Virus record (IMG/VR): IMGVR_UViG_3300034152_000556
Span: 44,709-108,708 of that record
Source of the DNA: a virus
Strand: one strand, 5' to 3'
DNA length: 64,000 nt
A program made the position numbers and the translations under genes. Shown here one piece after another: positions 31,272 through 31,600 of this stretch (its first letter is position 1; every line of letters begins with the position of its first letter). The notes under the pieces were generated by a model, which was given only the letters and a program-made list of their open reading frames with translations, made no database searches and had not been told where the DNA came from.

Positions 31272-31367
31272 GGGAGATAGAATATGTAGCTTGTGTGATA
31301 CTTGTACCTGTCAATGGTAGGTACGAGAGTTACAGTCTCGTTATCTGAAACTACATAAAGTTCTCCC
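31272..31367 (-). ncRNA. tRNA-like RNA unit B, Tyr(GUA)-like anticodon arm in a closing helix
   Basis: Closed by GGGAGA/TCTCCC, an internal loop, and ATGTAG/CTACAT, followed by the TTTC shared with the other units. Inside is an anticodon-type arm (CGAGA/TCTCG, loop CTGTAAC, anticodon GUA) and a second hairpin (TACCT/AGGTA) that could be the long variable arm of a tRNA-Tyr. A short helix GATA/TATC joins them. A D arm and a standard TTCRANY T arm are not evident, so it is the most degenerate member and cannot be a standard tRNA. Confidence 0.5.
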
Positions 31368-31377
31368 GAAAAAACAA

Positions 31378-31481
31378 AGTGGAGTAGCAATGTACTAAGA
31401 TGGGACTTGAACCCACAACATACTGTTTATAAGACAGTTGCTCTACCAGTTGAGCTACGGAAAGCACATTTAGTCTCCACT
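31378..31481 (-). ncRNA. tRNA-like RNA unit C, Ile(UAU)-like body lacking a matched acceptor stem
   Basis: Closed by AGTGGAG/CTCCACT, a 4x4 internal loop (ACTA/GCTA) and AATGTGCT/AGTACATT. Inside is a nearly canonical tRNA body: TA-GCTC-AACTGGTA-GAGC D arm, anticodon arm ACTGT/ACAGT with loop CTTATAA (anticodon UAU) and T arm GTGGG, TTCAAGT, CCCAT. The bases that should form the 7-bp acceptor stem do not pair with each other. The closing helix takes that place, so ordinary aminoacylation looks impossible unless the ends are remodelled. TTTTTT follows the unit. Confidence 0.6.
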
Positions 31482-31489
31482 GAAAAAAG

Positions 31490-31600
31490 AAAGGTAGTGA
31501 GAAATGTAGCTGTAAGGCGGATTTGAACCGCGTCTCTCCTTGGGCATAGGAGTGATGTACCAAACATCACTGAAACAGAAACTACATTAAGTCTACCTTT
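31490..31600 (-). ncRNA. tRNA-like RNA unit D, Gly(GCC)-like body lacking a full acceptor stem
   Basis: Closed by AAAGGTAG/CTACCTTT, an internal loop (ACTT opposite a short CT-rich strand) and AATGTAG/CTACATT. Inside is a D arm (GATG, TTTGGTA, CATC), an anticodon arm CTCCT/AGGAG with loop ATGCCCA (anticodon GCC) and a T arm GCGG, TTCAAAT, CCGC. Where an acceptor stem should be there is only CTGT/ACAG with 3-base unpaired stretches TTT and CTT on opposite strands, reminiscent of a bulge-helix-bulge. It is the first unit of the array, about 45 bases after the promoter-like motif, and is followed by a T-rich stretch. Confidence 0.6.

What the first reader, a model, noticed from the sequence alone, without database searches (positions are those of the whole stretch)
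31272..31600. Shared ACTT / AATGTAG / TTTC closing element around unrelated tRNA-like bodies
Seen: in all four units the 5' flank reads stem-ACTT(or ACTA)-AATGT(A/G)G-TTTC (unit C: CTTTC) and the 3' flank mostly CTACATT-GCTA-stem. The outer stem sequence differs in each unit but always pairs, while the internal loop and inner helix are conserved. This is covariation within one locus. Inference: the conserved internal loop is a protein-binding site, most likely for the TROVE protein, and the outer stem only needs to pair.
Basis: partly seen in the sequence, partly recalled or inferred. Interest (0 to 1): 0.78.

Follow-up and report, generated by a model that had tools for sequence, protein, structure and literature searches.

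The report
Ro60-linked arrays of tRNA-mimic RNAs
Next to a virus gene for a very divergent Ro60-type RNA-binding ring protein lies a row of six small RNAs that share one docking stem but carry different, often rearranged, tRNA-shaped bodies, and the same RNA-protein pairing recurs in other phages and in many bacteria, which points to an unrecognised branch of the Ro60/Y-RNA system.

Summary
The element is real and larger than reported. The window holds six units (30850-31600, minus strand), not four, all directly 5' of a Ro60-fold gene (29218-30756). Each is outer stem / ACU(U) internal loop / inner helix / UUnCAG / variable body. Both helices covary: 12 of 14 pairs show double-sided changes across 16 related units. 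A covariance model hit 36 places in 446 kb, all in arrays 5' of this Ro60 gene. All 17 distinct phage loci with this Ro60 carry the motif. So do at least 11 of 19 bacterial loci, where Ro60 often sits inside tRNA arrays with ARPP-1 next to it. No Pfam, NCBIfam or PHROGs model names the protein; the predicted fold does (Z 16.5 to Ro60). The bodies are tRNA-related: normal-order cloverleafs, circularly permuted tRNAs, tRNAs with the stem as an internal hairpin, or almost nothing. The permuted core matches YrlA (37 bits, below its 69-bit cut-off), but the stem does not. Best reading: a new variant of Ro60/Y RNA, in which one Ro60-docking stem is combined with many tRNA mimics. Binding and function are inferred. 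The decoy role against tRNA-cutting enzymes is the likeliest use but is unproven.

The parts
31490..31600 (-). Unit A: outer stem 8 bp (31593-31600 with 31490-31497), loop ACTT, inner helix AATGTAGTT/AGCTACATT, body with D-like hairpin, anticodon-like arm (loop AUGCCCA) and T-arm GCGGUUCAAAUCCGC
   Evidence: R1 36.5 bits; z -4.1
31378..31481 (-). Unit B: outer stem 7 bp, loop ACTA, inner helix AATGTGCT/AGTACATT in place of the acceptor stem, complete D/anticodon/T arms (anticodon loop CUUAUAA)
   Evidence: (tRNA RF00005 52.3 bits at 31399-31458)
31272..31367 (-). Unit C: outer stem 6 bp, loop ACTT, inner helix TATGTAGTTT/AAGCTACATA, body of two hairpins, no T-arm
   Evidence: (38.6 bits)
31103..31229 (-). 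Unit D: outer stem 7 bp, loop ACT(T), inner helix AATGTGG/CTACATT; circularly permuted tRNA body: anticodon arm (loop AUUGGGA), T-arm GTAGGTTCGAGTCCTAC, acceptor hairpin TCCCCCC-ACCTAC-GGGGGGA; the docking stem sits where the D-arm would be
   Evidence: tRNA 25.9 bits; 27.2 bits
31003..31093 (-).
   Evidence: z -5.6
30850..30909 (-).
   Evidence: 58.5 bits; member of the training set; z -5.7
31575..31593 (-). conserved 5' motif of unit A (RACU - inner helix - UUnCAG region)
31457..31475 (-). conserved 5' motif of unit B
31344..31362 (-). conserved 5' motif of unit C
31205..31223 (-). conserved 5' motif of unit D
31070..31088 (-). conserved 5' motif of unit E
30886..30904 (-). conserved 5' motif of unit F
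29218..30756 (-). Ro60/TROVE-fold protein, 512 aa (helical repeats + vWA domain with DASHSM)
   Evidence: pLDDT 85; Z 16.5 to Ro60 over 412 residues
28248..29213 (-). ARPP-1 domain protein (PF20208), conserved partner of this Ro60 in phages and bacteria

Best explanation
The six units are small structured RNAs of a Ro60/Y-RNA-type ribonucleoprotein system encoded by this phage. A shared docking element (outer stem, ACU-containing internal loop, inner helix, UUnCAG) is the handle by which the neighbouring Ro60-fold protein holds each RNA. The remaining part is a variable tRNA-derived body (or a short loop) that presents a tRNA shape to tRNA-recognising enzymes. Shown here: the RNA element, its covariation, its specificity for this Ro60 clade, the tRNA-derived and often circularly permuted bodies, and the Ro60 fold of the protein. 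Inferred: direct binding to Ro60; that the RNAs act in trans as separate molecules; and that the diverse bodies serve as decoys or adaptors for tRNA-cutting or tRNA-processing enzymes. For that last step I give about 0.35, with nuclease tethering as in Deinococcus next.
For: Linkage: 8 of 8 distinct group-1 phage loci and 9 of 9 group-2 loci, found through the protein, carry the motif near the gene. A motif-only DNA scan of IMG/VR independently returned the same Ro60 loci (L005, L009, L015 of 18 hits), and the 15 other hits gave no structured unit. Structure: 12 of 14 pairs with double-sided changes, 0 of 500 shuffles as good in pairing or covariation score; group-2 stems pair with their own 3' strand (median score 18) far better than with foreign ones (11). 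Specificity: all 36 model hits below E 1 in 446 kb lie in the arrays; the few weak hits elsewhere in whole records have E 0.04 or worse. Bacteria: same motif 5' of Ro60 in several phyla. Planctomycete control: 3 of 3 genomes with the close Ro60 have the motif within 600 bp upstream, while 9 of 245 others have it, at chance level. Bodies: tRNA matches, permuted order aligning to YrlA's core, folds. Protein: Ro60 fold.
Against: No binding or expression data. The protein is not recognisable as TROVE by sequence, so RNA-binding residues were not checked against Ro60. The docking stem differs from the YrlA consensus, so docking by the same surface is an assumption. In the window and in group 1 the array could equally be a 5' leader of the Ro60 mRNA. 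The automatic descriptor found the motif in only 9 of 19 bacterial loci; others were found with a second descriptor or by eye.
Confidence: 0.78

Rival explanations
1. Cis-acting leader: the units form the 5' UTR of the Ro60 mRNA and Ro60 binds them to regulate its own synthesis.
For: In the window, all group-1 phages and several bacteria the array lies directly 5' of Ro60 on the same strand.
Against: In group 2, units also lie 4 kb downstream of Ro60 among tRNA genes (L030:12774 and 12903), and a permuted unit lies about 73 kb from Ro60 in the L028 phage (L043). Up to eight units with unlike tRNA bodies are not needed for autoregulation.
Confidence: 0.1
2. tRNA biogenesis: the stems are leader/trailer or intron-like elements of real, sometimes permuted, tRNA genes that are matured to functional tRNAs.
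For: Many group-2 bodies are recognised as tRNAs by ARAGORN, several permuted ones keep an encoded CCA between acceptor strands, and some tRNAs carry the stem as an internal hairpin. Permuted tRNA genes are known in red algae, and reversed-order tRNA genes are processed through circles (PMC3400036, PMC10085705).
Against: Mini-units have no tRNA body but keep the whole motif (F here; L025:6493-6558). In units such as B the acceptor stem is replaced by the inner helix. Of 12 normal-order group-2 units, five have anticodon loops unlike decoding tRNAs (C33 in L030:6681 and L037:2831; A34 in L036 and L040:4304; UCA in L034). The motif is tied to a Ro60 gene.
Confidence: 0.09
3. Nuclease tether as in Deinococcus: the RNAs connect Ro60 to PNPase to degrade structured RNA, and the tRNA shape is only a fold the partner recognises.
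For: Known role of a bacterial Y RNA (PMC8058203, PMC7790460); would suit an adaptor with one constant end.
Against: Does not explain many unlike bodies per genome or mini-units without a body. Partly overlaps with the best explanation rather than excluding it.
Confidence: 0.2
4. A decayed tRNA cluster with chance hairpins or terminators.
For: Bodies are degenerate tRNAs; several stems are followed by T-rich runs.
Against: Compensatory changes, motif conservation and specificity to one protein clade.
Confidence: 0.02

Closest known systems
YrlA, Y RNA-like (Rfam RF02553)
   Same: Encoded beside a Ro60 gene; stem with internal loop closing a tRNA-like domain in permuted order (T-arm, acceptor hairpin, D-arm). 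Permuted units L033:5111-5238, L033:5698-5812 and L043 align over the whole model at 34-37 bits.
   Different: Below the 69-bit cut-off; the stem part does not match. Here many units stand in tandem, most are not in the YrlA order, some have no tRNA body, and anticodon arms are kept.
Ro60 / Rsr / TROVE proteins (Xenopus and human Ro60, Deinococcus Rsr, Thermus phage phiLo Ro60)
   Same: Predicted fold of the helical ring plus vWA domain (Z 16.5, 12.5 and 14.8).
   Different: No sequence-level match to Pfam TROVE, NCBIfam, PHROGs or PDB chains; paired with ARPP-1 (or ARPP-2) instead.
Animal Y RNAs (from memory)
   Same: Stem with a conserved internal loop as Ro60-binding site and a variable loop domain.
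   Different: No tRNA-derived body; conserved 5' sequence recalled as CGAA-type, here ACU(U). A faint likeness of the bacterial 3' strand (GCAnCnU) to the animal UGCACUU is only a lead.
Circularly permuted tRNA genes (red algae)
   Same: 3' half of a tRNA before the 5' half.
   Different: Here the ends meet in a Ro60-linked stem with a conserved motif; no sign that a functional tRNA is made.

Membership tests
Ro60/TROVE protein | Ro60 fold: helical repeat ring plus vWA domain | tested here: met
   AF2 model pLDDT 85; VIA-align Z 16.5 over 412 residues to Ro60, next unrelated rows about 10 and covering the vWA domain only; Foldseek E 3e-6
Ro60/TROVE protein | Match to the Pfam TROVE or an NCBIfam model | tested here: not met
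   no TROVE match in any of the phage or bacterial members tested
Ro60/TROVE protein | Binds Y RNA on its outer surface | not testable with these tools
   needs a binding assay or a complex structure
YrlA (RF02553) | Score above the family's gathering cut-off of 69 bits | tested here: not met
   best 37.3 bits
YrlA (RF02553) | Permuted tRNA-like domain: T-arm, acceptor hairpin, D-arm, closed by a stem | tested here: met
   permuted units in L033, L028, L043 and others; in the window unit D is permuted at another point (the D-arm)
YrlA (RF02553) | Docking stem sequence as in the model (CgaAUGC / AaAcUuGucG) | tested here: not met
   stem columns of the model mismatch; units read ACU(U) and UUnCAG instead
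Y RNA in the wide sense | Non-coding RNA encoded beside Ro60 with a stem and internal loop closing a variable domain | tested here: met
   (that it is transcribed as a separate RNA was not testable)
Y RNA in the wide sense | Physical association with the Ro60 protein | not testable with these tools
   requires co-precipitation or gel shift
Functional tRNA | Acceptor stem with processable ends and a decoding anticodon loop | tested here: not met
   window units: ARAGORN finds none; in B the acceptor is replaced by the inner helix. Group-2 units vary; five of 12 have non-decoding anticodon loops

The most novel reading that the evidence does not exclude
A previously unrecognised Ro60 clade, shared by phages and bacteria and often embedded in tRNA gene arrays, carries its own class of Y RNAs in which one constant docking stem is grafted at many different points onto circularly permuted tRNAs. 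The array is a panel of Ro60-held tRNA decoys with changing specificity, used against tRNA-cutting defence or attack enzymes.
Probability: 0.33. Interest if true: 0.9.

Novelty: new variant of a known kind. Interest (0 to 1): 0.78.

Why it matters
Ro60 and Y RNAs are conserved from bacteria to humans, yet what bacterial Y RNAs do is largely open; Deinococcus is the one well-studied case. This family gives a clean comparative handle. It has a short docking motif separable from the body, many natural bodies per genome, permutations of the tRNA at several junctions, and a protein clade that current databases call hypothetical. Cultured carriers exist (Minicystis rosea, Yinghuangia soli, Stieleria, Rhodopirellula, Alkaliphilus), so it can be tested. 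It also offers a possible link between tRNA arrays, jumbo-type phages and RNA-based conflict.

Tried and rejected
Single-sequence searches of the protein in Pfam and PDB, and profile or member-wise searches in NCBIfam, PHROGs and PDB, led nowhere; only fold comparison identified it. Rfam at gathering threshold sees only one tRNA in the window, and ARAGORN none. The first unrestricted stem descriptor was useless, with many chance hits. Swapping 3' strands within group 1 separated own from foreign only weakly, because the outer strands are all purine-rich; the column-wise covariation test replaced it. MAFFT could not align the 3' ends of the tRNA-bearing units across groups, nor the bacterial mini-units, so no joint model was built. 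RtcB occurs in 3 of 17 records and RNA ligase (PF09414) above cut-off in 2 of 17, mostly incomplete records, so they are not shown to be a constant part. Papers: no held paper describes this RNA class; the key YrlA papers (Chen 2014, Sim 2018, Sim 2020) are not held.

Full report
What is in the window. The record is a linear 108.7-kb virus contig, of which the window is one part. The finding lies on the minus strand between an 85-aa ORF (31677-31934) and a 512-aa ORF (29218-30756), the 'TROVE' gene. All features point the same way, so the RNAs stand directly 5' of that gene. I find six units, not four: A 31490-31600, B 31378-31481, C 31272-31367, D 31103-31229, E 31003-31093 and F 30850-30909. 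Each has an outer stem of its own sequence, the loop ACU(U/A/G), an inner helix of 7-9 bp with UGUR in it, then UUUC/UUCC/UUCA(G), a body, the inner strand, 2-5 unpaired bases and the outer strand. The minimum-free-energy fold of each shows this, with z-scores from -3.0 to -5.7.

Is it more than chance? The protein finds a 50%-identical relative on another contig (L001), and a profile finds 21 loci. In all eight distinct group-1 loci (window, L001, L022-L025, L028, L029) the intergenic stretch 5' of the gene holds a tandem array of three to about eight such units. From 33 occurrences chosen by sequence only, the 5' strand reads R-ACU-(U)NN-U-R-U-R-R-UUUCAGA. Sixteen mini-units aligned without hand correction give a consensus of 6 outer pairs and 8 inner pairs; 12 of 14 pairs carry changes on both sides, 95.5% of cells pair against 73% after shuffling, and the covariation score is 0.749 against 0.293. 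Sliding the partner by one to three columns drops pairing to 39-50%. A covariance model from these 16 (R1) searched 446 kb including 15 phage loci without this gene: 36 hits below E 1, every one in an array, about 20 of them not in the training set. Over whole records the few hits outside have E 0.04 or worse.

Independent linkage. A pure DNA motif scan of IMG/VR returned 18 stretches; three of them (L005, L009, L015) lie at this gene (and the contig names), and the other 15 contain no structured unit by the model, so they look like chance. A second clade of phage proteins (20-28% identical to the window's; L003/L035, L030, L033, L034, L036-L038, L040, L042) carries the variant R-(A/G)CU-n-inner helix-UU(A/U)CAG in every distinct locus. 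Their 5' strands pair with their own 3' strands (median score 18) much better than with those of other units (11).

Bacteria. One genome scan found 19 bacterial or archaeal-MAG relatives; group-2 phage proteins are 41-45% identical to the Planctomycete one where closest, while group 1 is more divergent (23-24% for the members aligned). The motif stands 5' of the gene in Deltaproteobacteria (L046, L047), Minicystis (L051), Yinghuangia (L050), Planctomycetes (L054, L057-L059, L063), a Chitinophagales MAG (L052), Pseudohongiella (L055, by eye), a Desulfobacterales MAG (L060, by eye) and a 435-kb Alkaliphilus plasmid (L097, R1 hit E 0.017). A conservative descriptor found 9 of 19 loci against 0.3 units expected from shuffles. 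Control: among 248 genomes of the class of L058, three hold the close Ro60 and all three have GGACTN{3,6}CGTCAWTNCAG within 600 bp upstream on the same strand; nine of the other 245 have the pattern, about as often as the backward control. Two of the three have tandem arrays of four to six units. In L046, L047, L051, L055, L057 and L059 the gene sits among 15 to 38 tRNA genes (some of these 'tRNAs' are the units themselves). ARPP-1 (PF20208) follows the gene in phages and bacteria, ARPP-2 in a sister type.

The protein. Neither Pfam, NCBIfam nor PHROGs recognises it, nor does a profile search of PDB sequences. The predicted structure does: Z 16.5 over 412 residues to Ro60 in RNA complexes, 14.8 to the Thermus phage phiLo Ro60, 12.5 to Deinococcus Rsr; the next unrelated rows reach about 10 and cover only the vWA domain. 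A published survey already reported ROT/TROVE proteins in a small subset of jumbo phages (PMC7824862), without describing these RNAs.

The bodies. They are mostly tRNA-derived, but joined to the stem in different ways. (i) The stem replaces or flanks the acceptor end: units A and B, many group-2 units; B matches the tRNA model with 52.3 bits. (ii) Circular permutations, with T-arm and acceptor 3' strand first, a short loop, then acceptor 5' strand and D-arm: L033 (five units), L028:6819-6966, L037:2669, L038:5236, L046, L051, L060; unit D of the window is permuted at the D-arm. (iii) An ordinary-ended tRNA with the whole stem as an internal capped hairpin at the variable region or anticodon loop: L030:12774 and 12903, L038:6729, L042:5437. 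(iv) Almost no body: F, L025:6493-6558. Assignment of the exact junction is by eye on sequence and fold, so individual cases may shift. Five of 12 normal-order group-2 units have anticodon loops with C33, A34 or a UCA anticodon, which argues against decoding.

Relation to YrlA. Permuted units align over the whole YrlA model with up to 37.3 bits, E about 1e-7 per record; the tRNA-like core (T-arm, acceptor hairpin, D-arm) matches and the stem does not. The score is well below the 69-bit cut-off, and tandem ordinary tRNAs alone reach 29 bits (G010:131336), so this is likeness of architecture, not membership.

How it most likely works. Shown: the element, its covariation, its tie to one Ro60 clade, tRNA-derived bodies. 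Inferred: Ro60 holds each RNA by the stem, because the stem motif is the only part common to all units and follows the protein from phylum to phylum. Inferred, less certain: the bodies act on tRNA-recognising enzymes. In Salmonella, YrlA was not cut by the anticodon nuclease, and its authors proposed it may inhibit that enzyme competitively (PMC7790460). Several unlike bodies per genome, embedding in tRNA arrays and presence in phages fit a decoy panel better than a single tether. Tethering to PNPase as in Deinococcus (PMC8058203) remains possible. The leader reading is weakened by units 4 kb downstream of Ro60 (L030) and about 73 kb away (L043 in the L028 phage). The tRNA-maturation reading is weakened by body-less units and non-decoding anticodons.

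Limits. Most group-1 and group-2 records are incomplete contigs. No expression or binding data. Canonical Y-RNA literature was not readable here, so statements about the animal and Deinococcus motif rest on memory or on the Rfam model. The novelty statement is bounded by Rfam 15, Pfam, NCBIfam, PHROGs and the open-access library.

Noticed in passing
L046, L047, L051, L055, L057, L059: Bacterial members of this Ro60 clade sit inside clusters of 15-38 tRNA genes; a systematic Ro60/tRNA-array association has not been measured.
   Followed up: partly
window 28248-29213; L048, L058, L059, L088, L097: ARPP-1 (PF20208, PGAP name DUF6569) or ARPP-2 follows this Ro60 in phages, bacteria and an Alkaliphilus plasmid; function unknown.
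   Followed up: partly
L024:5918-5985, L001:5500-5575, window 31236-31265: Other GC-rich hairpins without the ACU/UUnCAG motif stand between the units.
   Followed up: no
L043 (G007:C1:122532-122634): A permuted tRNA with GUUUCAGG lies about 73 kb from the Ro60 array in the L028 phage.
   Followed up: partly
window 23553-26131: DUF2201 metallopeptidase/vWA protein next to a putative AAA ATPase, conserved in L001 in the same order.
   Followed up: no
window 34435-38511: ORF of 1358 aa that looks like an RNA polymerase beta subunit, followed by an SNF2-type helicase ORF (by eye, not searched).
   Followed up: no
bacterial units (L054, L063, L086, L087): The 3' strand of bacterial units reads GACC-nGCAnCnUn-CCC; GCAnCnU faintly recalls UGCACUU of animal Y RNAs.
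   Followed up: no
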